From Shewanella oneidensis MR-1 (GTDB lineage: Bacteria; Pseudomonadota; Gammaproteobacteria; Enterobacterales; Shewanellaceae), in contig NC_004347.2 of assembly GCF_000146165.2 (NCBI RefSeq), positions 310,001 through 374,000 of the forward strand: a DNA stretch of 64,000 nt, given 5' to 3'. Under the pieces are notes generated by a model. That model searched no databases, was not told the DNA's origin, and saw only the letters and a program-made list of their open reading frames with translations. Of this stretch, positions 869-13,832 are shown piece by piece (within the stretch, counting starts at the first letter, position 1; every line of letters starts with the position of its first letter). Both the position numbers and the translations under genes were made by a program.

Positions 869-1038
869 AAAGATCGGACTGGCATAACTTTTCTTCCTTA
901 AAAAATTGGCCAATAACATTAGAGTCAAAGGAATACACTATCCCCTCGGAGATGCCGCAGGGCATTGGCGTTCGTTGCGTTATCTAGGTATGGTTGTTTT
1001 CGTGCAGCAGATCCTTAGCGAAATAGAAAATGTCAGTA
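869..1038. repeat. Degenerate direct repeat, copy B (~170 bp)
   Basis: This is the second copy of the 452-620 sequence, about 417 bp downstream, with the cloverleaf-like element lying between the two. A 60-codon open frame (906-1088) crosses this copy, but the same frame is broken in copy A and has no ribosome binding site. I therefore do not call it a gene. Confidence 0.75.
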
Positions 1039-1175
1039 GAGACGGCTTACTATTGTGTGCCCAGCTAATGTGGCGAAATATAGGCTAAAACGGATAATGC
1101 GAGCCAAAGAGAGCGCCTATTCGGCCAAAGAGTTGAATCGCTAAGGCCGATAGTCTGTTAACCCAACCACTTCAC

Positions 1176-2813
1176 TTAAAAGCTTTGTTTGACTAAGAAG
1201 CGCCATTCCCAGCTGTTGACTGAATCTCCACCCGTGTAAGGCACTGAAAAGTCGATATGGGCGACGTTGCCGTAACTGGAGCGGGAGGAATAAATTCGTG
1301 CGCCAATGCCGATGCTACCGAGCGGGCCGCTGACCTCGTTATTGGCCGCTAACGGGCCACCGGAGGCTTGGCCAATATCGGTAAAGACAGCCCAGCCGAG
1401 TTCGGCTAATTGGTACAAGTTGATATTGGGATAGTTGCGGATTTCGGCGGTCAATGACCATTGATTATCTCCTTGTTGATATTCGTTGGGATAACCGCGC
1501 ACACCAGTTTCATCCCCAAGCCCTTTGGTGAGGTCGAGGTAAGTATTGTTCGACAGGCTCGCCCACGCTTTACCATAGCCAGTCCATTTAGGATTGATTT
1601 GATAGAAGTATTCCGCTTGGACGCTGGCTTGATAACTGTCTTTTTGAGTGGTGCCTAGGGTGCTGGTGGCGCCCATTGCCAGTAGCCAGAGATGTTCATC
1701 AAATTTATAACCGCGGCTGGTTTGCCATTTTACATGGTAACCCACGGGCTGATTGTCGCGGATATCATTGGTTTCGATACCGAGTTGAATGTAGTGGTGC
1801 CAGCCTAAGTTAAAGTCTTCGTTATTACGGATCAGATGCACGTTATTGAGTATGTGGAAATCATCTTGAACATATTCATAGGCAACCCAGGGATACATAA
1901 AATCCCGGTCCTGCGGTAATTCAGCGTTAGGGTAAATTGCTGAATGGGCAAATTCGTGTCTGTCTTGTGTCACGCCTGTAATCACGCGGGATAGATGATC
2001 ATTATTGCGATTGATTAACCAGCCATATTGCAGCTTAAGGTAATCGACTGCATGGGCATATTCGTTTATGTCTTCACCATTTTGTCGCAGGGTGTCGGTG
2101 CGGCTGTCATCTAAATATTCCGCCGAGTACATGGTTTCAGTATTCAATGAATAGAAAGGCTTACTTACGTACACATGCTTAGCTTGGCCGTCGCTATTAT
2201 CGTAAAACTCGGCGGCAACAATGCCGTGATCGATAAAACTGACGGGGGCTTCAAAGGCAAATTTATAACCCGTGCGCGACTCGTCGGATTGATACTTTAA
2301 GCGGGTACGAATACCGGTACCGAAGAGGTTGTCTTCTTTTACCCCAAAGGAAAAGCGAGTATCACCTCCTGAGCTACCAAAACTGGCGGTTGGCAGTAGC
2401 GACCAGTTATCCCAAGTTTCGATAATGATGGACTCGTCGTTGGGCTGCACATCGGCCTGCGGATCTTTCTCGCTAAAATAGACTTTTGCATCGCGAATAT
2501 AGGGTTCTGCGCGCAGTAAACGTTGTGATTCATCGAGATCTTTTTGGGTGACTGTATCGTTTTCACTAAAGGTCAGTTTGTCGCGAACCACATATTCCTT
2601 GGTATTGATATGTAAATAGTTTGCCCAGCGGTGGATAAAAAACGCATCGGGGTCGGATTCATCGAAGATTGGGTTGCTCACCACCACAATCTTACTCACC
2701 TTTTTAGGGGCTTTATCCGTGGTGGTTTTGGGCACAGCTTCATCCGCTCTGGCTAGGCTGACGAGGCCACAGAGGCAACAAGGAATAAGCGCATACTGGG
2801 TAAACTTTTGCAT
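1176..2813 (-). CDS. Outer-membrane beta-barrel protein, surface-antigen (BamA/TamA-like) family
   Basis: The frame opens at a GTG (2822), but ATG 2813 has GGGAG eight bases upstream and begins a signal peptide ending LVSLARA, so I start there (545 aa). After the signal comes a single POTRA-like region (about residues 35-120, with VSKIVVVSNPIF and LLRAEPYIRDAKVYF). It is followed by a long series of amphipathic strands with GTGIRTRLKYQSDE, and the protein ends in phenylalanine (VKQSF), as outer-membrane barrels do. BamA itself is longer, with five POTRA domains, so this is a short relative of unknown substrate. Its role in outer-membrane assembly or export is inferred from the family only. 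It is transcribed alone. Confidence 0.7.
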   Translation of the reverse strand: MQKFTQYALIPCCLCGLVSLARADEAVPKTTTDKAPKKVSKIVVVSNPIFDESDPDAFFIHRWANYLHINTKEYVVRDKLTFSENDTVTQKDLDESQRLLRAEPYIRDAKVYFSEKDPQADVQPNDESIIIETWDNWSLLPTASFGSSGGDTRFSFGVKEDNLFGTGIRTRLKYQSDESRTGYKFAFEAPVSFIDHGIVAAEFYDNSDGQAKHVYVSKPFYSLNTETMYSAEYLDDSRTDTLRQNGEDINEYAHAVDYLKLQYGWLINRNNDHLSRVITGVTQDRHEFAHSAIYPNAELPQDRDFMYPWVAYEYVQDDFHILNNVHLIRNNEDFNLGWHHYIQLGIETNDIRDNQPVGYHVKWQTSRGYKFDEHLWLLAMGATSTLGTTQKDSYQASVQAEYFYQINPKWTGYGKAWASLSNNTYLDLTKGLGDETGVRGYPNEYQQGDNQWSLTAEIRNYPNINLYQLAELGWAVFTDIGQASGGPLAANNEVSGPLGSIGIGARIYSSRSSYGNVAHIDFSVPYTGGDSVNSWEWRFLVKQSF

Positions 2814-2987
2814 AAAAGCCACTCCCGCAAAATGGATAGCAGCAGGCTAAGACTCTGCTGCGTTTCACAATTTAATAACACACGGGATACGACAATTAGT
2901 CAAGTAAACATTTTAATAAGATTATGATTTTACATAAGGTTGTTTTAAGAATCGGGCCGGAGTTGGCGCCAGCCCTAGGGGGAGCGG

Positions 2988-4208
2988 TTATAGCGTACGC
3001 CTTGGTGGCACCACGACGTTAGCAAAAATCAGTCCGGCGATAAGCGACATAAAAATCAAAAAAATCTGCGAGCCAATATGGGACTGGTTAAGCATGGTTT
3101 CACCCGATATTAGCGCATTAAGGCCAATATAGGTTTTACTGCCGGGGACTAAGATAACGATCCCTTGCAGGAGCGCAATCGAGGCTGGTGCCTTCATCCA
3201 GCGGGCATAAAGATTGGAGTAAACCCCCACAGCTAAGGCGCCGAAAAAGATCCCAACCGAATCCCCAAAAAAGTGTCCGCCTAACATCGCAGAGAAAAAC
3301 GCGACAATCCCTGCCAGCACGCCCCAAGGTGAATCTTGCATGCGCGCTTTAAAGATAAACACTAAGGCCATTGAGAGAATGGGGACTGCCGACCAAATCG
3401 CCCAGCGGGGCAAGCCTTCTGGTTCGATATAAATCGCTTCGCCAAACATCGCTTTACCTATCGCCATGCCGAGCACTGCACCAAAATACAGCTTAAACAA
3501 CAGCATACTGGCGTCCATGATCCGCGCCGTGCCCGAAATCAAGTCGCGGGCGGCCAACTCCGCAAGCCCCAAGGTTAAGGCTAAACCGGGAATAAAGATG
3601 ATGATCGAGGAGAGGATCACCACTGGAATATTAATATTGGGATCAATACGCGCAATCGCGCAGGCGACAATGGCGCAGACGATAGTTGCAAAGGGCTCTA
3701 ACACTTCAGCCATACGGCTCGAACGTTCGGCGCGGTAAACAAAGCCATAAACTAATAAGCCTAATAAGCCTGACCAAAAGACATCGTTCCACCCTGTGCC
3801 CATCAGCATAGCAAAGGCCGCTGCCGAGGTGCCAAAGGAAAAACACGTTAAAACTGGACCATAGGGGTTGGGTTTATTGGCAATTTCCTCTAGCCTGTCT
3901 AAGGCTTCGGTGAGCGTGCGTTTGCCCGAGGTGAGTTCATCCACCAGTTCATCGGTGCGGGCGAGGGAGCCTAAATCCAACTCACCGGGTTTTACCCGCG
4001 CAACATGGTTATATTCTTGATCGGTATCGTGTTGTAGTACGAAGGTCATCGAGGTTGGCGAGATTAAAAAATACCCTTCGATGCCCAGTGTCCGAGAGAC
4101 GGTTTGTAGATGGGTTTCAAGACGATAAGCGGGGGTGCCAAACTTATGTAAAGCCTTGCCTAGCTTAATGATAAATTTACGCTTTTCGAGAAACTGTTCG
4201 TTATCCAA
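2988..4208 (-). CDS. ThrE-family threonine/serine exporter, fused YjjP-YjjB type
   Basis: 406 aa. The N-terminal half is soluble (LGKALHKFGTPAYRLETHL, then PTSMTFVL) and matches the conserved head of the ThrE/DUF1212 family. The remainder is about ten hydrophobic helices in two sets, corresponding to the YjjP-like and YjjB-like parts that are separate genes in E. coli. Family members export threonine, serine or small dicarboxylates across the inner membrane; the substrate here is unknown. The only available start is a TTG at 4208 without a clear ribosome binding site, and the next methionine lies inside the conserved region. It is divergent from the MAPEG gene, sharing a 155-bp upstream region. 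Confidence 0.8.
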   Translation of the reverse strand: MDNEQFLEKRKFIIKLGKALHKFGTPAYRLETHLQTVSRTLGIEGYFLISPTSMTFVLQHDTDQEYNHVARVKPGELDLGSLARTDELVDELTSGKRTLTEALDRLEEIANKPNPYGPVLTCFSFGTSAAAFAMLMGTGWNDVFWSGLLGLLVYGFVYRAERSSRMAEVLEPFATIVCAIVACAIARIDPNINIPVVILSSIIIFIPGLALTLGLAELAARDLISGTARIMDASMLLFKLYFGAVLGMAIGKAMFGEAIYIEPEGLPRWAIWSAVPILSMALVFIFKARMQDSPWGVLAGIVAFFSAMLGGHFFGDSVGIFFGALAVGVYSNLYARWMKAPASIALLQGIVILVPGSKTYIGLNALISGETMLNQSHIGSQIFLIFMSLIAGLIFANVVVPPRRTL

Positions 4209-4363
4209 TCGGGGTATTCACTGTATAAAAAGTTGTAAGAAATTGCGCGCGCATATTAACCTATCTCGTCACTAAAAGGTTAATGGCTTTTAACCTTAAT
4301 ACAAATAAATTGCTGAATTTGTGCGGTGTATGCCGCAGTTGTGTTAATTAAAAGGGAGTTGCT

Positions 4364-4762
4364 ATGCCGTTAATTGTTACAGGATTTTACGCCAGCTTGA
4401 CGGGATTGTTGATCGTCGCTTTAGCGTATCGAGTGGTGAAAATAAGAAAAAGCCAAAAAATCGGCATCGGCGATGGTGGTAACAATGCCTTGGTGCTGGC
4501 GGACAGAGTGCATGCGAATCTGATTGAGAATGCGCCCATCGTATTGATTTTAATGCTGGTGGCTGAGGCGGGTGGCTTAGCGCATTTCTATTTGCATTGC
4601 TTTGGTACCGTGTGGATTGTGGCGCGTTTGCTCCATGCTATCGGCCTCACGCAAGGCAAAGGAGGTTATCATTTCGGGCGTTTTTGGGGAGTATTACTCA
4701 CTTGGTTAGTGACTCTTTCGCTCGCGCTGGTCAACTTAGTGCATTTTGCCCAAAGTATGTAA
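4364..4762 (+). CDS. MAPEG-family membrane protein
   Basis: 132 aa with four predicted membrane helices. The segment DRVHANLIENAPIVLILM carries the RxxxNxxE pattern typical of the MAPEG superfamily (membrane-associated proteins in eicosanoid and glutathione metabolism). Bacterial members resemble microsomal glutathione transferases, but most, including the small YecN-like ones, have no proven activity. ATG 4364 is preceded by GGGAG at good spacing. It stands alone between the divergent exporter gene and ygiQ. The family is secure; the reaction is not. Confidence 0.8.
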   Translation: MPLIVTGFYASLTGLLIVALAYRVVKIRKSQKIGIGDGGNNALVLADRVHANLIENAPIVLILMLVAEAGGLAHFYLHCFGTVWIVARLLHAIGLTQGKGGYHFGRFWGVLLTWLVTLSLALVNLVHFAQSM

Positions 4763-4808
4763 GCGTAAGGATAGGGCAATCGCAGTCTACGCCATGTCCT
4801 TAGGCACT

Positions 4809-4845
4809 TTAGGGGTATTAAGCGCATTGGCGCAAATACCCCTAA
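4809..4845. other. 11-bp perfect inverted repeat between the MAPEG gene and ygiQ
   Basis: TTAGGGGTATT (4809-4819) pairs with AATACCCCTAA (4835-4845) around a 15-base loop that holds a smaller GCGC / GCGC pairing. No T tract follows on the plus strand, so it is not a standard intrinsic terminator, although it lies where the upstream transcript would end. Confidence 0.5.
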
Positions 4846-4975
4846 AAACACCTCGGCTGCTGCTTTTTTAATCGCGCTTATCCCTGTTTGCCTGCTATAC
4901 TCCGCGTCCCTAAATCGGTGCGGTCTGTTTTTTGCTCGCACCTTTGTTTGACATTACGTTTTTGGGTCAAAATCG

Positions 4976-7336
4976 ATGCAAGTTGAATCCACATTGTTTA
5001 GCCATCCCAAGTATTGGGCCGAATGCTTTGGCACAGCGCCTTTCTTACCTATGTCCCGCAAGGAGATGGAGAAATTGGGCTGGGATAGTTGTGACATCAT
5101 TATTGTCACTGGCGATGCCTATGTGGATCACCCCAGTTTTGGCATGGCGGTGATTGGCCGCATGTTAGAAGCCCAAGGCTACCGCGTTGGGATTATTGCC
5201 CAGCCCGATTGGTCGAGCAAAGATGCCTTTATGCAGCTGGGTCGTCCGAATCTATTTTTTGGCGTTACCGCCGGCAATATGGATTCAATGATCAACCGTT
5301 ACACCGCTGATCGCCGTATCCGCAGCGATGATGCCTACACTCCCGGCGATGTGGGCGGTAAGCGTCCCGACCGCGCAGTCACGGTTTATACCCAGCGTTG
5401 CAAAGAAGCCTTTAAAGATGTGCCCGTGATTATCGGCGGCATCGAGGCGAGTTTGCGCCGTATCGCGCACTATGATTATTGGTCGGATAAAGTCCGCCGC
5501 AGCGTGATTTTCGATGCCAAGGCCGACATTTTAATGTACGGCAACGCCGAGCGTCCGTTGGCCGAAGTGGCGCGTCGTTTAGCGGCGGGCGAAGCAATTG
5601 CGGATATCCAAGATGTGCGCGGTACAGCGGTGATCCGTAAAGAACCTATGCCCGAATGGCGTGGGATGGACTCACGCAAAATCGATCAGTTACACAAAAT
5701 TGATCCTATCCCCAATCCCTATGGGGCCGACGATGTGGGCTGCGCCAATTTATCTGGCCCATCGGATGCAAAAATTTTCGATAACGATGCGCCAAAGCCT
5801 ATCAGTGTGCAGCCGCCGCGCCCTAAGCCATGGGATAAAACCTATGTGCTGCTGCCGGCCTTTGAAAAGGTGTCTGAAGACAAATACTTATATGCCCATG
5901 CCTCGCGGATTTTGCACCAAGAGCAAAACCCGGGTTGTGCGCGAGCGTTGTTCCAGCCCCACGGTGACCGTGGCGTGTGGGTGAACCCGCCAGCTTGGCC
6001 GCTCAATACCGACGAAATGGATGCCGTGTTCGATTTACCCTATAAACGGGTGCCGCATCCTGCCTACGGTAAGGAAAAAATCCCCGCCTATGACATGATC
6101 AAAACCTCGATCAACATCATGCGCGGTTGCTTTGGTGGCTGTTCATTCTGCTCGATTACCGAGCACGAAGGCCGGATTATCCAGAGCCGTTCGCAAGAAT
6201 CGATTATCAAAGAAATCAAAGATATTCAGGATAAAGTGCCCGGTTTTACTGGGGTGATTTCTGACTTAGGTGGCCCTACCGCCAACATGTATCGCCTTGG
6301 CTGTACTAGCGAAAAAGCGGAGAAAACCTGTCGCCGTTTATCCTGTGTGTATCCATCGATTTGCGGCCATTTAGGCACAGACCATAAACATACCATCGAC
6401 TTGTACCGCGCCGCTCGCGCTGTGCCCGGCATTAAGAAAATCTTGATTGCTTCGGGTGTGCGTTACGACTTAGCGATTGAAGATCCTGCTTATGTCAAAG
6501 AGTTAGTCCAGCACCATGTGGGCGGCTATTTAAAAATCGCCCCTGAGCATACCGAAGAAGGGCCGCTCAGCAAGATGATGAAACCCGGCATGGGCGCCTA
6601 CGATAAGTTTAAAGAGCTGTTCGATAAGTTTTCTAAGGAAGCGGGTAAAGAGCAGTTCCTGATCCCTTATTTTATTTCGGCGCATCCGGGCACGACCGAT
6701 GAGGATATGTTAAACCTCGCGCTCTGGTTGAAGGAACGTAAGTTTAAGCTCGACCAAGTGCAAAACTTCTACCCATCACCGATGGCGAATGCGACGACTA
6801 TTTATCACACTGAGCTGAACTCGCTGAAAAACGTTAAGCACACCAGTGAAGTGGTGCCAGTGCCGAAGAAGGGCCGCCAGCGCCGCTTGCATAAGGCGCT
6901 GCTGCGTTACCACGATCCAGCAGGTTGGCCGATTATCCGTGAAGGCTTGATTGCCATGGGGCGTGAAGATTTGATTGGTAACAGCCCGAATCACCTCGTG
7001 CCGCCAGAAGGGCGCAACGAGCGTGGCCCTAAATGGATGAAGGATGCCAACCAAGGGCAAAAAGCCCTGACACGCTTCTCGGGTAATCAGTTTGATGAGC
7101 GTAAAGGCAAAGGCGATGCCAAGGGCAAACCGAGCGCAAGCAAGCCTAAGGGACCAAAGTCTGGGGCGAATGCGCCGCAAAGTCAGCAGCCTAAAACCAG
7201 CCGTCCTGGAGCTAAGGCGCCATTTGGTCAGTCGGGCTTTAAGGGCAAAGCTGAGCAGGGGAAAGCGGGTCAAAATAAGGCGGGTCATCAAGGGCGTGCG
7301 GGTAAAGCCTCTTCTGGCCGTCAGCAGGCCAAGTAG
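4976..7336 (+). CDS. ygiQ: YgiQ-family radical SAM protein
   Basis: 786 aa. The N-terminal domain (about residues 1-370, starting [16 protein letters not shown]) is specific to YgiQ/UPF0313. The radical-SAM cluster motif GCFGGCSFC places the three iron-sulfur cysteines at about 385, 389 and 392. A barrel follows, with [12 protein letters not shown] and [19 protein letters not shown]. The last ~110 residues are a lysine-, glycine- and glutamine-rich low-complexity tail, a probable disordered, nucleic-acid-contacting extension. The protein should bind a 4Fe-4S cluster and S-adenosylmethionine; its substrate is unknown. ATG 4976 keeps the conserved N-terminus. It is transcribed alone and converges on the porin gene. 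Confidence 0.93.
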
Positions 7337-8822: not shown

Positions 8823-10142
8823 TCACGCCGCTTTAATCTCGACGCTTGGGGTTTTATTTGAGATCACCCCGTAGATAGTCCAGCCGAAGAAGGTCGCGAT
8901 AGCGCCTAACATCACAGCTGTTTCACCAGAACTATAGAGGGCGTAGAAGCTATAAAGGGCACCGATAACCGCAATCACGTTGGCGACACGGGCTTTGTTT
9001 GCGGGCACTTTCAGTTGTTTTTGCATTACGCCTAGGGCTGCCATCGACAGGATATAAGGCACAATGTTAGTTACCACCGCAAGGTTAACGAGCGCTTCAA
9101 ACTGTTTGCTCAGTGATGGGCTGATAGTCATCAAAGACAGCAGGGTTTGAATCGAAACAATAATGGTCATCCCCCAAATTGGTGCATCGGCTTTGCTGAC
9201 TTTAGCGAACACTTTAGGGAAGAAACCTTCATCGGCAGAGGCTTTAAACACTTGCGCAATAGTAAACTGCCAACCGAGCAGCGAACCAGTACAGGAGATA
9301 ATGGCGCAGGCCATCACGATTTTACCCACAACTGGGTTAAACATTTGCGCGAAAGCTAAACCAAAAGGAGCATTTGAGCTGGCAAGTTCAGCGTTGGGTA
9401 CAATACCGGCAATCACGTTAGTGGAAACAATATAGATAAGTGCTGCACCTAAGGTTCCGCCCATTACGGCGATAGGAACATTTTTCTCTGGATTATCAAC
9501 AGCCTCTGAGTTGGCGCAGGCAGATTCTAAGCCAAGAAATGCCCATAAGGTCATCGCGATTGAACCACCTAAGGCTTTGAAGAAAGGCATATCATGTGGG
9601 TTCCAAGCACCTTTATAGAGGTCAATATCAAACCAGAACCAACCGATCAATGACACGCCAATCACTGGCAGAATAATCCCCCACACGGTCACGCTACTCA
9701 CGCGGCCAGTAATGCGAGCACCGCCAAAGTTTGCGACTGTGGCTAACCAAAGGACGCCAATAGTGGCAAGACAGATGGCCATAGGGCTTAAGTTAACTTC
9801 GAGTAATACGGCTGCGTAACCTACAGCGGAGATGGCGATGGCGACGTTGGCGATAAGTAGCGAAACCGCATAGGTGTAGTTCGCCATAAAGTTACCGCTG
9901 CGGCCAAAGGCATATTCGGCATAACCGCCCATCCCACCGGATTTTTTGCTGAACATACCGCATTTTGCAAATGCAAAGGCCAGCGCGGTTGAGCCTGCAG
10001 CGGTAACAAGCCAAGAAAGCACAGAGATAGTACCGACTTGTGCTAATTGGGTGGGCAGCATGATAATCCCAGAGCCCATCATATTCACTATGGTGATAAT
10101 CGTTAATTGGACAACGCCAATTTTATTTTCTGATTTACTCAT
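8823..10142 (-). CDS. potE: Putrescine-ornithine antiporter PotE
   Basis: 439 aa with twelve hydrophobic helices of the APC superfamily. The first helix region NMMGSGIIMLPTQLAQVG is the substrate-contacting segment conserved in PotE and CadB, and GGMGGYAEYAFGRSGNF follows. It should exchange external ornithine for cytoplasmic putrescine, which couples to the decarboxylase encoded just upstream and consumes protons. It is the distal gene of the speFL-speF-potE operon, 83 bases after speF, with a large hairpin in between. The length equals that of E. coli PotE (439 aa). Confidence 0.93.
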   Translation of the reverse strand: MSKSENKIGVVQLTIITIVNMMGSGIIMLPTQLAQVGTISVLSWLVTAAGSTALAFAFAKCGMFSKKSGGMGGYAEYAFGRSGNFMANYTYAVSLLIANVAIAISAVGYAAVLLEVNLSPMAICLATIGVLWLATVANFGGARITGRVSSVTVWGIILPVIGVSLIGWFWFDIDLYKGAWNPHDMPFFKALGGSIAMTLWAFLGLESACANSEAVDNPEKNVPIAVMGGTLGAALIYIVSTNVIAGIVPNAELASSNAPFGLAFAQMFNPVVGKIVMACAIISCTGSLLGWQFTIAQVFKASADEGFFPKVFAKVSKADAPIWGMTIIVSIQTLLSLMTISPSLSKQFEALVNLAVVTNIVPYILSMAALGVMQKQLKVPANKARVANVIAVIGALYSFYALYSSGETAVMLGAIATFFGWTIYGVISNKTPSVEIKAA

Positions 10143-10225: not shown

Positions 10226-12388
10226 TTATTTATTTAACACATAACCTAAGGCTTGGATTTTTCCGTCAGGGGTGCTTTCGAGATAAACACCTTGTAATTC
10301 AGGGGAGAATCCGGGTAATAAGTTGATGCCTTCTTCGAGAGCTAAGAAATAACGTTGTACTGCGCCACCCCATATTTCACCTGGCACCATACATAACACC
10401 CCTGGTGGATATGGCAGGGCGCCTTCTGCGGCAATTCGACCTTCGATTTGCGACAGTGGCACTAATTCGACATTGCCACGAATAAATTCAAGATTGGCTT
10501 CCTGCGGGTCCATCACCTTGGTTGGGAAGTGAGCATGGCGGAACATTTCTTTTTGCAGTTGTTTTACGTCATGGCTGACATAAAGGTTGTGCATTTCTTG
10601 GCAGAGTTGGCGAATGGTGTAGTCTTTATAACGGGCTTTATTGGCGTTATAGACGTTTGGCAATACTTCCGATAATGGCGCATCTTCATCGACTAATTTC
10701 TCGAAGCGGGATATTTGCGACACTAAGTGCTGCATTTTTGCCATATCTTCCGCAGGTGTCATTAGGAATAATATCGAATTTAAGTCGCACTTCTCGGGAA
10801 TAATATTATTTTCACGTAAGAAGTTAGCCAAAATAGTCGCTGGAATACCAAACTCAGTATATTTACCGGTTTCGGCATCAATACCTGGTGTGGTTAATAG
10901 GAACTTACAAGGGTCAACGAAATATTGGCCTTTTTCATAGCCCTCGAATGAGTGCCATTTTTGTCCTGGTTCAAATTCAAAGAAGCGCAAATCATCGGCC
11001 ATTTGCTCGGTTGGGTAATCCTGCCATTGGCGGCCATCGATCATGCTGGGGATAAATGGCTTGATATACTTACATTTTTTAAGCAGTAACTTACGGGCTT
11101 CAATCCCGGCTTTGACGGCTTCACGCCACAGATAACGGCCGCTGGCACCTTCGTGCATCTTAGCGTTCACATCTAATGCGGCAAACAGTGGATAGAAGTG
11201 GCTGGTGGAGGCGTGCATCATAAAGGCATTGTTGAAACGTTTATGGTTGCAATATCTCGCTTGGCCTTTGATATGTTTATCTTTTTTATGGATTTGCGAC
11301 GTTTGTGAGAAACCTGCCTGCTGTTTATGTACTGATTGAGTCACGATAATACCGGGATCTTCAGGCGTCAGTTCCAGCAGCAGTGGCGAGCAGTCATTCA
11401 TCATAGGAATAAACTGTTCATAGCCAACCCAAGCCGAGTCAAACAGGATGTAATCACATAGATGACCAATACGATCAACCACTTGGCGAGCATTGTAGAT
11501 GGTGCCGTCGTAGGTGCCGAGTTGGATAATCGCTAAACGGAACGGGCGTTTTTCATCGGCACGTTCTGGTGCAACTTCGCGAATTTGTTCCCTTAAATAA
11601 GCTTCTTTGAAGCAGTGGGCGTCGATACCGCCAATAAAGCCGAAGGGGTTACGGGCGGTTTCTAAGTAAATCGGTGTTGCGCCGGCTTGAATTAACGCAC
11701 CATGGTGGTTGGATTTGTGGTTATTACGGTCGAATAATACTAAATCACCTTTAGCAAGCAGCGCATTGGTGGCGACTTTATTCGAGGAGGAAGTGCCGTT
11801 AAGCACAAAGTAGGTTTTATCGGCGTTAAAGACTTTTGCCGCATATTTTTGTGCATCCAGTGGTGCACCTTCGTGGATTAACAGATCACCGAGTTTTACG
11901 TCAGCATTACACATGTCGGAGCGGAAAATGGTTTCGCCAAAGAAATCGAAAAATTGGCGACCTACGGGATGTTTACGAAAGAATTGTCCGCCCTGATGGC
12001 CTGGGCAGGCAAAGGTGGAGTTACCCATTTCGACGTATTTTTTCAGAGTGCCAAAGAAGGGCGGTAATAGAGCTTGCTCATATTTCTTGATAGCGGTTTC
12101 GACCTGCTTACCATAGAAATCGGTATTGCTACCGCAGAGTTCAAATACCCCGGTAATCGAGGAACAAATATCATCTGGGAAGGTTTCTTCGCAGCAAACT
12201 GATACGAAAATAGGCAGTTTTAATCCGGTATTTTTAATTTTTTCAACAATACCATCTTTAACATCATCAACAGAGACTACAGCCGCACCCACATCGCAAA
12301 AATCAGTGGTTAATACATTGACAACTTCTCTGTCTATATCAAAACAAGATCTAACAGATAAGCTTGCGGCAACTTTTAATGATTTCAT
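10226..12388 (-). CDS. speF: Inducible ornithine decarboxylase SpeF
   Basis: 720 aa from ATG 12388, which has AAGGA eight bases upstream; the longer TTG-initiated frame (12430) lacks this. It is a fold-type I PLP enzyme converting ornithine to putrescine. An N-terminal wing domain is followed by GNSTFACPGHQGGQFF, the DKTYFVLNGTSSSNKV cofactor region and the PLP-lysine motif TQSVHKQQAGFSQ. The C-terminal domain contains EGALPYPPGVLC and PGEIWGG. Similarity to E. coli SpeF runs end to end. It is the second gene of the operon, after the leader peptide and before potE. Together they produce and export putrescine and raise internal pH. Expression is predicted to be ornithine-induced through the leader. 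Confidence 0.96.
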   Translation of the reverse strand: MKSLKVAASLSVRSCFDIDREVVNVLTTDFCDVGAAVVSVDDVKDGIVEKIKNTGLKLPIFVSVCCEETFPDDICSSITGVFELCGSNTDFYGKQVETAIKKYEQALLPPFFGTLKKYVEMGNSTFACPGHQGGQFFRKHPVGRQFFDFFGETIFRSDMCNADVKLGDLLIHEGAPLDAQKYAAKVFNADKTYFVLNGTSSSNKVATNALLAKGDLVLFDRNNHKSNHHGALIQAGATPIYLETARNPFGFIGGIDAHCFKEAYLREQIREVAPERADEKRPFRLAIIQLGTYDGTIYNARQVVDRIGHLCDYILFDSAWVGYEQFIPMMNDCSPLLLELTPEDPGIIVTQSVHKQQAGFSQTSQIHKKDKHIKGQARYCNHKRFNNAFMMHASTSHFYPLFAALDVNAKMHEGASGRYLWREAVKAGIEARKLLLKKCKYIKPFIPSMIDGRQWQDYPTEQMADDLRFFEFEPGQKWHSFEGYEKGQYFVDPCKFLLTTPGIDAETGKYTEFGIPATILANFLRENNIIPEKCDLNSILFLMTPAEDMAKMQHLVSQISRFEKLVDEDAPLSEVLPNVYNANKARYKDYTIRQLCQEMHNLYVSHDVKQLQKEMFRHAHFPTKVMDPQEANLEFIRGNVELVPLSQIEGRIAAEGALPYPPGVLCMVPGEIWGGAVQRYFLALEEGINLLPGFSPELQGVYLESTPDGKIQALGYVLNK

Positions 12389-12697
12389 CGTTAATTTCCT
12401 TTTTACTTTAAAAAGCTTTGGATACAACAATGCCTATACCTAATTAAATATATTAATGGCATTAAAATTAGATATGGCTATTCCGCGTGCAGATATGATG
12501 AGGCAATAAGTCGCTTTAGAATAAAATAAATAGATTTATTCCAAGTGAGTGACTTAGCCGCAGTTTTACTGCACTAACAAAAATGCTTTGATTTGAATGC
12601 GAGACAATAAGCCTTGTAAAACAGTAAAGTAAGTGCATAAGCCTATAATGGCAATACCACTTTTGACCTGTTAATTGGCCTACTACCTACGCGAAGA
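12389..12697 (-). promoter_or_regulatory. speFL-speF leader region (putative conditional termination zone)
   Basis: These 309 non-coding bases separate the leader peptide stop from speF. In enterobacteria the equivalent stretch carries a Rho-dependent terminator that is escaped when the ribosome stalls on SpeFL in the presence of ornithine. Here I see no intrinsic terminator, only a modest stem GCAG/CTGC near 12560-12573, which is compatible with a Rho-type mechanism. The mechanism is inferred. Confidence 0.5.
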
Positions 12698-12802
12698 TTA
12701 GCGAAGGAAGATAAATGAATGGTCGAAATAGTCACGTTGGCTAGGCATCATGATATGTCTAGTACGTCGGATATGTGCCATGATCTTAGATTTCCTCTTC
12801 AT
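12698..12802 (-). CDS. speFL: SpeFL-like ornithine-sensing leader (arrest) peptide
   Basis: A 34-codon frame, ATG 12802 to TAA 12698, lies 309 bases upstream of speF on the same strand. As I recall it, E. coli SpeFL is also 34 residues, and the two align without a gap. The shared residues are M8, HIRRT at 10-14, HIM at 16-18, R23, FD at 26-27, F30 and R34. In E. coli the HIRRxxxH segment helps form the ornithine pocket in the ribosome exit tunnel, and the C-terminal end causes stalling, which exposes or blocks Rho sites and induces speF. GGAG lies seven bases before ATG 12802. An in-frame ATG at 12814 is an alternative start. The arginine pair is coded CGA-CGT, with a rare AGA two codons later. 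Confidence 0.85.
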   Translation of the reverse strand: MKRKSKIMAHIRRTRHIMMPSQRDYFDHSFIFLR

Positions 12803-13280
12803 ATACAACTCCATTATGAAAGTAGAGAAAATTATTGGTTTTTATTACGGGGTGGATTTTATCTGTGTGTTATCAATAAAAATATGATCCGTGTCTTATT
12901 TTTAATTAACTGTAATTATTTATTTCAATGTTTTTATAAAAATAAATACAGTCAATCATCCTTAAGTATCATTACCTAAATAACGAAAGTAAATATTGTC
13001 AGTTTATCTTTTAAATTAAAAAATGCATAAATTAATAAATAATAAATATCTAATTACTCTCTAAATACTGTGTTAATTCATTTTGAAATTTATAAAGCAC
13101 GCCATGTTTGCATAAAAATGCAGATATAGCCTTTACAAAATCACTTGAGTGCTTAAAGATGGCAAAAAGCGTACTCTTTTTCTCAAATTTGAGCATTTAG
13201 GGAAGAAACTTGGCGTTTTGAGGCAGGTTTGTTACTTAAGACTGACGTAAATTAATCCTGTTACCTATCTAAAGGAGATA
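12803..13280. other. AT-rich divergent intergenic region upstream of speFL and the PEBP gene
   Basis: About 480 bases, strongly AT-rich, between the speF leader and the next gene. It must hold the promoters of both divergent units. I found no box close enough to consensus to call. The 86-codon plus-strand frame across 12719-12979 overlaps speFL, has no ribosome binding site and has biased composition, so it is not called a gene. Confidence 0.5.
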
Positions 13281-13832
13281 ATGATGATGAATTTACATAA
13301 GTGGATAGTAGGAATTGGTTTATTTACCGCGGTATTAGGGTCGGCTCAAGCCATGACCTTATCGAGCAAAGATATTGGCGAAGGTCAGTTATTATCCAAT
13401 CAATTTGTTTTTAATGGCTTTGGTTGCACGGGTGAGAATATTTCCCCCCAACTTGCTTGGCGTGATGCCCCTGAAGGTACGAAAGCCTATGCGGTGACGG
13501 CGTATGATCCCGATGCGCCCACGGGCAGTGGCTGGTGGCATTGGGCCGTCTACAATATTGGTGGCGATCAACAGCAATTAGCGCAAGGTGCTGGCTCTAA
13601 GCACAATGGCCTACCTAAGGGGGCGATTGCGCTAAAGAATGATTTTGGCACTACCGACTTTGGCGGCGCCTGTCCGCCACAGGGGCATGGAATGCACCGA
13701 TATGAGTTCACAGTGTGGGCATTACCTAATCCATTGGAATTGCCAAAGGATGCCTCACCCGCACTGTTGGGATTTATGCTCAGGGCGCAGGCTTTGGGTA
13801 GCGCTAAGTTGACTGCTGTCTACCACCGCTGA
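13281..13832 (+). CDS. Periplasmic YbhB/YbcL (PEBP/Raf-kinase-inhibitor-like) protein
   Basis: 183 aa. Three consecutive ATG codons follow AAAGGAGATA; any of them could start the protein. A signal peptide ends in SAQA, so the mature protein is periplasmic. The PEBP signatures are present: NISPQLAWRDAPEGTKAYAV, then YDPDAPTGSGWWHWAVYNI, GHGMHRYEFTVWAL and the C-terminal LRAQALGSAKLTAVY. Bacterial YbhB proteins have the phosphatidylethanolamine-binding fold, but their physiological role is unknown. The AraC-type regulator gene starts 17 bases downstream, so the pair is probably co-transcribed. Confidence 0.9.
   Translation: MMMNLHKWIVGIGLFTAVLGSAQAMTLSSKDIGEGQLLSNQFVFNGFGCTGENISPQLAWRDAPEGTKAYAVTAYDPDAPTGSGWWHWAVYNIGGDQQQLAQGAGSKHNGLPKGAIALKNDFGTTDFGGACPPQGHGMHRYEFTVWALPNPLELPKDASPALLGFMLRAQALGSAKLTAVYHR

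What the first reader, a model, noticed from the sequence alone, without database searches (positions are those of the whole stretch)
12698..12802. An unannotated SpeFL ornithine-sensing arrest peptide precedes speF in this Shewanella-type genome
A 34-codon minus-strand frame, too short for the usual ORF cut-off, aligns without gaps to the 34-residue enterobacterial SpeFL as I remember it. It keeps HIRRT at 10-14, HIM at 16-18, R23, FD at 26-27 and R34. It lies 309 bases upstream of speF and has a GGAG box. The C-terminal residues differ from E. coli (FIFLR against FFNAR), so the stalling end may work somewhat differently. A rof gene for a Rho inhibitor is present in the same window (29829).
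Basis: partly seen in the sequence, partly recalled or inferred. Interest (0 to 1): 0.85.

Follow-up and report, generated by a model that had tools for sequence, protein, structure and literature searches.

The report
Ornithine-sensing leader peptide before speF
The short reading frame is a real SpeFL leader peptide, a known kind of nascent-chain ornithine sensor that switches on the gene behind it; comparing its relatives suggests that the place where it stops translation can move, and that in some of them the sensor itself may be switched on and off by a DNA repeat.

Summary
The 34-codon frame is real and is a SpeFL: Pfam PF10940 at 45.3 bits (cut-off 25), aligned to the solved E. coli chain 6tbv. 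It lies 309 nt before speF-potE. Of 129 Shewanella genomes 26 carry SpeFL above the cut-off, all 26 before speF; of 28 with full-length SpeF, one lacks SpeFL and one has it cut by IS10A. Selection acts on the peptide: pN/pS 0.05 in codons 2-27, 0.24 in 28-34. The 309-nt leader has a conserved RNA fold, starting with a 15-bp hairpin 5 nt after the stop.

Likely mechanism, by homology: ornithine arrests the ribosome at R34/stop, blocking Rho and refolding the leader so speF is expressed. Arrest was not tested.

Beyond the window, the stalling end is not fixed: 28 of 46 distinct SpeFL peptides run past codon 34, and in Pasteurellaceae constraint weakens after it, so arrest there may occur during elongation. 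In six Avibacterium and Rodentibacter-type genomes a tetranucleotide tract just after the start leaves a selected sensor core out of frame: a possible phase-variable ornithine switch. The window's peptide itself is a new member of a known family.

The parts
12698..12802 (-). speFL: 34-codon ORF MKRKSKIMAHIRRTRHIMMPSQRDYFDHSFIFLR, stop TAA
12809..12812 (-). GGAG Shine-Dalgarno of speFL, 6 nt before the ATG
   Evidence: the stretch around it is nearly invariant in the 18 close Shewanella rows
12734..12775 (-). conserved core, codons 10-23 (HIRRTRHIMMPSQR), the sensor half by analogy with E. coli
12698..12721 (-). variable stalling end, codons 28-34 plus stop (HSFIFLR*)
   Evidence: pN/pS 0.24 against 0.05 upstream
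12599..12692 (-). downstream-of-stop hairpin: arms 12692-12677 and 12613-12599, 15 pairs, 5 nt after the stop codon
   Evidence: alignment A1 of 18 sequences, 96.7% of cells paired, two pairs changed on both sides
12487..12574 (-). GTGCAG (12574-12569) with two possible partners: a local CTGC (12563-12560) and a distant CTGCAC (12492-12487), which exclude each other
   Evidence: each kept in full in 17 of 18 rows, one pair short in the other; coordinates
12432..12478 (-). hairpin upstream of the speF ribosome-binding site (arms 12478-12465 and 12445-12432)
   Evidence: 98.7% of cells paired, mostly invariant, so little covariation
12396..12401 (-). AAGGAA Shine-Dalgarno of speF, able to pair weakly with the T stretch at 12583-12579
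   Evidence: 5 or 6 pairs in each of 18 rows
10226..12388 (-). speF, inducible ornithine decarboxylase
   Evidence: TIGR04301 1430.1 bits, cut-off 1310
8823..10142 (-). potE, putrescine-ornithine antiporter
   Evidence: TIGR04299 752.5 bits, cut-off 560

Best explanation
The frame is the Shewanella SpeFL, a cis-acting ornithine-sensing arrest peptide for speF-potE. Shown here: it is an ORF under strong protein-level selection, belongs to PF10940, precedes speF in each of the 112 SpeFL loci checked that hold enough downstream DNA (species overlap), and is followed by a conserved structured leader in which no intrinsic terminator was found. Inferred by homology: free ornithine is held in the exit tunnel by the N-terminal sensor, the last residues compact near the peptidyl-transferase centre, and release at R34/UAA fails. 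The stalled ribosome would cover the base of the hairpin that starts 5 nt after the stop and keep Rho off C-rich, G-poor RNA, so that transcription goes on, the leader refolds, the speF ribosome-binding site is freed, and ornithine is turned into putrescine and exchanged by PotE.
For: PF10940 45.3 bits over a 25-bit cut-off; alignment to 6tbv SpeFL, E 1.6e-4. 26 of 129 Shewanella genomes over the cut-off, all 26 with speF 224-324 nt downstream; 26 of 28 genomes with full-length SpeF of 81% identity or more carry it. pN/pS 0.048 in codons 2-27; frame controls. Leader fold: alifold z -12 against 50 column shuffles; 57 pairs, 97.4% of cells paired, 0 of 500 shuffles as high, slid structures 33-49%. 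No terminator-like site in 12380-13280 (0.3 expected in shuffles, so weak evidence). The most C-over-G 78-nt stretch of ORF plus leader starts 25 nt after the ATG; 2.0% of 78-nt segments of the window reach its value (it is a maximum over the leader, so less striking than it sounds). In Salmonella orf34, the same family, translation prevents Rho termination and ornithine raises a speF fusion from 908 to 5624 units (PMC6386406, sections 6 and 8 read).
Against: No arrest, ornithine response or Rho effect was measured in Shewanella here or in any paper found here. Residues 28, 29 and 31-33 differ from E. coli, and the stop is UAA, not the UAG of the E. coli-type loci. R34 is not kept within Shewanella: 8 of 26 genomes end otherwise. 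G104 has SpeF (81%) and no SpeFL upstream. The alifold structure was derived from the rows it is counted on; many helices hardly vary, and one slid control (-2) has as many two-sided changes as the structure itself (4 pairs, 7 cells against 4 pairs, 6 cells).
Confidence: 0.82

Rival explanations
1. Arginine-codon attenuator: the ribosome pauses at the two Arg codons 12-13 when charged tRNA-Arg is short, and this alone sets the leader fold and speF mRNA decay; ornithine arrest is minor or lost in Shewanella.
For: Proposed for Salmonella, where KK for RR abolishes arginine control while R34Q does not (PMC6386406, section 8 read, section 9 in passages). The leader fold is conserved. R12 and R13 are present throughout, though the pattern used to collect relatives demanded them.
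Against: Constraint covers codons 2-27 as a whole, including M8, R23 and F26, not only the Arg pair; a codon-based attenuator needs no such conservation. In Salmonella ornithine also acts through the same leader.
Confidence: 0.1
2. A small stable protein acting in trans, not a leader.
For: Strong protein-level conservation.
Against: In cis before speF in all loci checked. In Salmonella, ORF34 supplied in trans left the speF fusions of orf34 mutants unaffected by arginine (PMC6386406, passage).
Confidence: 0.03
3. Chance open frame, or an RNA element without translation.
For: Only 34 codons; the flanking RNA is structured.
Against: Frame-specific pN/pS 0.074 against 2.55 and 2.30; PF10940 match; alifold of the ORF itself gives z -0.28.
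Confidence: 0.01

Closest known systems
E. coli SpeFL (PDB 6tbv, 6tc3; Herrero del Valle 2020: paper not held, known here through passages of PMC8429421 and recall)
   Same: 34 residues, HIRRT-x-HIM, R23, FD 26-27, R34, upstream of speF
   Different: 16 of 34 residues identical to the E. coli-type L053; end FIFLR against FFNAR; stop UAA against UAG; Arg for Thr at 15, Pro for Phe at 20
Salmonella ORF34 (Ben-Zvi 2019, PMC6386406)
   Same: same family (DUF2618/PF10940), leader without intrinsic terminator, hairpin after the stop, structured speF ribosome-binding site
   Different: start-to-start distance 484 nt there (nt 32 to 516), 414 here; Rho and RNase G control were measured there, not here. 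Its S1 Fig lists representatives that could not be seen, so a Shewanella member may be among them
TnaC (tryptophan leader peptide)
   Same: ligand-dependent termination arrest (PMC8429421 passages)
   Different: unrelated sequence, other ligand; TnaC binds its ligand only when fully made

Membership tests
SpeFL (PF10940) | profile match over Pfam's gathering score | tested here: met
   45.3 against 25 bits
SpeFL (PF10940) | lies just upstream of speF(-potE), same strand | tested here: met
   309 nt; SpeF and PotE models over cut-off; 26 of 26 Shewanella loci have speF downstream
SpeFL (PF10940) | sensor residues HIRRT-x-HIM, R23, F26 | tested here: met
   M8, R23 and F26, not demanded by the pattern, are invariant in 46 of 46 distinct peptides; L127, fetched later, has Leu at 26
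SpeFL (PF10940) | protein-level selection on the frame | tested here: met
SpeFL (PF10940) | ends at codon 34 with Arg before the stop (E. coli arrest geometry) | tested here: met
   not general in the family: 17 of 46 distinct peptides end at codon 34, 10 of these with R34
SpeFL (PF10940) | ornithine-dependent ribosome arrest | not testable with these tools
   needs toeprinting or profiling
SpeFL (PF10940) | Rho-dependent termination between leader ORF and speF | tested here: inconclusive
   no intrinsic terminator found (0.3 expected by chance); C-over-G stretch reached by 2.0% of window segments
SpeFL (PF10940) | structured leader with hairpin after the stop | tested here: met

The most novel reading that the evidence does not exclude
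In part of the family SpeFL is a phase-variable arrest peptide. In Avibacterium and Rodentibacter-type genomes a perfect tetranucleotide tract (8 to 22 copies) begins 5-10 nt after the A of a start codon that has a GGAGG-like box; it puts that start out of frame with a sensor core under selection in all six complete cases. Slippage would switch the whole ornithine response of speF on and off in a heritable way. Together with the moved stop codons, the arrest site in these lineages would be set by the peptide near residue 34, during elongation, and not by the stop codon as in E. coli.
Probability: 0.5. Interest if true: 0.75.

Novelty: new member of a known kind. Interest (0 to 1): 0.5.

Why it matters
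There speF mutants are reported to change biofilm and current (PMC8176591, passages), and speF shows a log2 change of about -3 in the arcA comparison although ArcA did not shift its upstream DNA (PMC2262068, section 15 read): a leader that reads ornithine is a candidate for that unexplained step. The natural series of stop positions offers ready-made tests of whether SpeFL blocks release or elongation, and the repeat-bearing relatives would join nascent-chain sensing to phase variation.

Tried and rejected
Two sub-threshold PF10940 hits in Shewanella (G090, G086; L029, L030) lack the HIRR core, have no speF in the locus, and lie antisense to a long frame that reads like a cyclophilin-type isomerase (by eye); set aside as chance. 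G480 (26.8 bits) lacks the HIRR core, has no speF in the 5 kb fetched and looks like a dispersed repeat; set aside. The statement that SpeFL always precedes speF therefore rests on loci that carry the core. Two sub-threshold hits outside the order (G597, G713) were not followed; in the class sample 1 of 369 genomes was over the cut-off, the window's own. No Rfam family reached its gathering score in 12000-13400. Plasmids and phages: no tblastn match at E 0.01. A fixed distance between stop and hairpin was looked for in 39 distinct relatives and not found: the first paired base lies 0-17 nt after the start of the stop codon and z runs from about 0 to -5. A sharp selection boundary at codon 34 was not found either: in Pasteurellaceae positions 30 and 32 vary as much as 36-38; only segment means differ.

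G904 (L130) was fetched but not read, as the script's pattern found no frame in it; L127-L129 were not checked for speF. The distinct peptides were picked with a pattern that fixes most of H10-M18, so conservation there is circular.

Papers: PMC6386406 abstract, sections 6, 8 and 24 and passages; PMC2262068 section 15 and passages; passages only of PMC8429421, PMC7815308, PMC8176591, PMC9808388, PMC5343134, PMC3711429; PMC6889271 was searched for five terms, none found; all others seen as listings. No figure or supplement was seen. 'speFL' occurs in 17 papers of the library, several plainly unrelated; Shewanella with speF, ornithine decarboxylase and leader: 0.

Full report
What is there. The minus-strand frame 12802-12698 reads MKRKSKIMAHIRRTRHIMMPSQRDYFDHSFIFLR and TAA, with GGAG six bases before the ATG and 309 bases between its stop and the ATG of speF. 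It matches Pfam PF10940 SpeFL at 45.3 bits, cut-off 25, and the E. coli SpeFL chain of 6tbv/6tc3 by sequence, E 1.6e-4. NCBIfam, the library NCBI uses for naming, gave no match for it or for two other SpeFL peptides, so it may well be missed in annotation; no annotation of this genome could be seen. The next genes are a SpeF (TIGR04301) and a PotE (TIGR04299), both over their cut-offs.

Which genome. The two contigs are 4,969,811 and 161,613 bases; from memory these are the chromosome and megaplasmid of Shewanella oneidensis MR-1, so the window's speF would be SO_0314. This identification is recalled, not from a call.

Shewanella census. 28 of 129 genus genomes have a hit at E <= 0.001, 26 of them over the cut-off. 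The other two (L029, L030) look like chance. All 26 are followed by speF at 224-324 nt. Full-length SpeF of 81% identity or more occurs in 28 of 129, a C-terminal piece in one more (G043). The two SpeF genomes without an intact SpeFL are G038, where the first codons of speFL are replaced by DNA identical over 205 bases to sequence annotated as IS10A, and G104, with no SpeFL-like motif in the fetched locus. Presence thus goes nearly hand in hand with speF.

Selection. Among 23 distinct Shewanella ORFs pN/pS is 0.048 for codons 2-27 and 0.24 for 28-34. Over the first 33 codons it is 0.074 in frame and 2.55 and 2.30 in the other two frames. The peptide, not the RNA fold, is what is kept in this stretch: alifold of the ORF gives z -0.28.

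The leader RNA. In 18 close Shewanella sequences the stretch from the stop to the speF start has an alifold z of -12 against 50 column shuffles. Counted on alignment A1, 57 pairs are formed in 97.4% of 1023 cells, 0 of 500 shuffles as high; four pairs have changes on both sides (shuffle mean 1.4, reached by 8 of 500). Structures slid by 1-3 columns pair in 33-49% of cells, but the slide by -2 has as many two-sided changes as the structure itself (4 pairs and 7 cells against 4 and 6), so covariation proper is weak and the case rests on pairing. The first helix starts 5 nt after the stop codon, where a ribosome held at codon 34 would overlap its base (footprint size recalled). A GTGCAG element can pair either with a CTGC nearby or with a distant CTGCAC, each kept in full in 17 of 18 rows: a possible switch. 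A U-rich element can pair weakly with the speF Shine-Dalgarno. The structure was drawn from the same rows, so this supports a conserved fold more than any one helix. The eight more distant Shewanella leaders share little sequence (alignment A2); folds of the first 115 nt after their stops have z from 0 to about -3. No terminator-like site was found in 12380-13280, with 0.3 expected by chance; none was reported for Salmonella either.

Mechanism. Salmonella orf34 is the same family; its translation prevents Rho termination, ornithine raises a speF fusion from 908 to 5624 units, arginine lowers it, R34Q keeps the arginine effect and replacing the stop codon by Trp abolishes it (PMC6386406, sections 6, 8 and 24 read, others in passages). 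SpeFL of E. coli binds ornithine through its N-terminal sensor and then blocks RF1 (PMC8429421, passages; the original paper is not held). The same working is the best explanation here. Ornithine dependence, arrest and Rho action are inferred, not shown.

A possible use. In S. oneidensis so0314 (speF) has log2 changes of -3.03 and -2.79 in the arcA comparison, yet its upstream region was not shifted by phosphorylated ArcA (PMC2262068, section 15 read). SpeFL, by reading ornithine or arginine pools, is a candidate route. This is a proposal only.

How far the stalling end is kept. In the order sample 31 of 394 genomes are over the cut-off (one of them, G480, judged chance), in the family of G231 (Pasteurellaceae, judged from the named loci) 38 of 140, in the genus of G431 1 of 37. 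speF follows in 26 of 26 loci (L003-L028), 23 of 23 (L031-L053), 34 of 37 (L054-L090; the other three hold under 320 nt after the stop) and 29 of 29 (L097-L125); these sets overlap in species. Of 46 distinct peptides counted from M8, the window's included, 17 end at codon 34 (E. coli numbering), 28 run on to 38-45, and one stops early, at 27 (L104). Of the 17, ten end in R, two in K, three in L, one each in I and S. Shewanella carassii and S. chilikensis have 39 codons. Vibrio mimicus stops after codon 34 and V. metoecus after 38 with otherwise colinear DNA. So R34 and a stop at 35 do not define the family.

Where constraint ends. In 31 distinct Pasteurellaceae-type ORFs pN/pS is 0.081 for codons 8-27, 0.375 for 28-34 and 0.757 for 35-42 (bootstrap over sequences, 200 draws: 0.30-0.44 and 0.70-0.82); in a close group of 14 it is 0.047, 0.043 and 0.450. 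In 24 distinct peptides, per-codon pN is lower in 28-34 than in 35-42 (one-sided Mann-Whitney p 0.014). In three 39-codon Shewanella the last five codons show 1.27, from very few changes. Rows are related, and positions 30 and 32 are as variable as 36-38, so the boundary is soft. Still, arrest at about codon 34 during elongation fits these lineages better than arrest at the distant stop. That is my reading; no call tests arrest.

An unexpected finding in relatives. In Pasteurellaceae without repeats the ORF begins 17-29 codons before M8, at an ATG with a purine-rich box. The extension is coding: pN/pS 0.27 (11 sequences), 0.16 (5) and 0.36 (3) in frame against 0.74-2.5 in shifted frames. By script such a start is in frame in 26 of 35 distinct Pasteurellaceae upstream regions; of the other nine, four carry tracts and are out of frame, one is cut by the contig end, and in four the script chose another ATG (of these, L080 is a tract locus, L098 is in frame, and L073 and L083 have a nearer in-frame ATG by eye). 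In six of the 38 genomes (36 seen in full, one cut inside such a tract, one not read) a perfect tetranucleotide tract follows the start: AAAC x8 (Avibacterium paragallinarum) and x19 (A. gallinarum), ACAT-type x9 (Rodentibacter genomosp. In all six the ATG is out of frame with the sensor, yet codons 8-27 of these six have pN/pS 0.039. A selected core behind an out-of-frame repeat is the mark of phase variation by slippage, and not of decay; six of six off is not very unlikely by chance ((2/3)^6 is 0.09). Against it: assemblies can miscount repeats; within-species variation could not be looked at; one of the six (L127) has Leu at the otherwise invariant F26, which may be decay; and an AAAGG-type box before M8 might allow a second start.

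Verdict. The window's SpeFL is a canonical 34-residue member. The family around it is less uniform than the E. coli model suggests, and that is where the interest lies.

Noticed in passing
L059, L079, L080, L113, L115, L127 (L119, L117 and L105 repeat the first three): Tetranucleotide tracts of 8-22 copies just after the SpeFL start codon in Avibacterium and Rodentibacter-type genomes, start out of frame with the sensor core in six of six: possible phase-variable leader peptide.
   Followed up: partly
L076 and L087 (Vibrio mimicus, V. metoecus): SpeFL stop codon lies four codons further downstream in one of two Vibrio species with colinear flanking DNA.
   Followed up: partly
L091 (G038): IS10A end replaces the first half of speFL in a Shewanella relative, leaving codons 15-34 (by eye) and speF: a natural sensor-loss allele.
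   Followed up: partly
L092 (G104): A Shewanella SpeF with 81% identity and no SpeFL upstream; instead short GTTTTACCCGAAGAA repeats just before the start.
   Followed up: no
L104 (G916): Stop inside SpeFL after codon 27 (E. coli numbering) with speF still downstream.
   Followed up: no
window 12560-12574 and 12487-12492: GTGCAG element with a local and a distant partner, mutually exclusive, each kept in full in 17 of 18 rows: possible RNA switch in the leader.
   Followed up: partly
window 10226-12388: If this is S. oneidensis, its speF is strongly arcA-dependent without observed ArcA binding (PMC2262068).
   Followed up: partly
L031, L035, L056 and other Pasteurellaceae loci: SpeFL carries a 17-29-residue coding N-terminal extension not seen in the E. 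coli-type or Shewanella peptides.
   Followed up: partly
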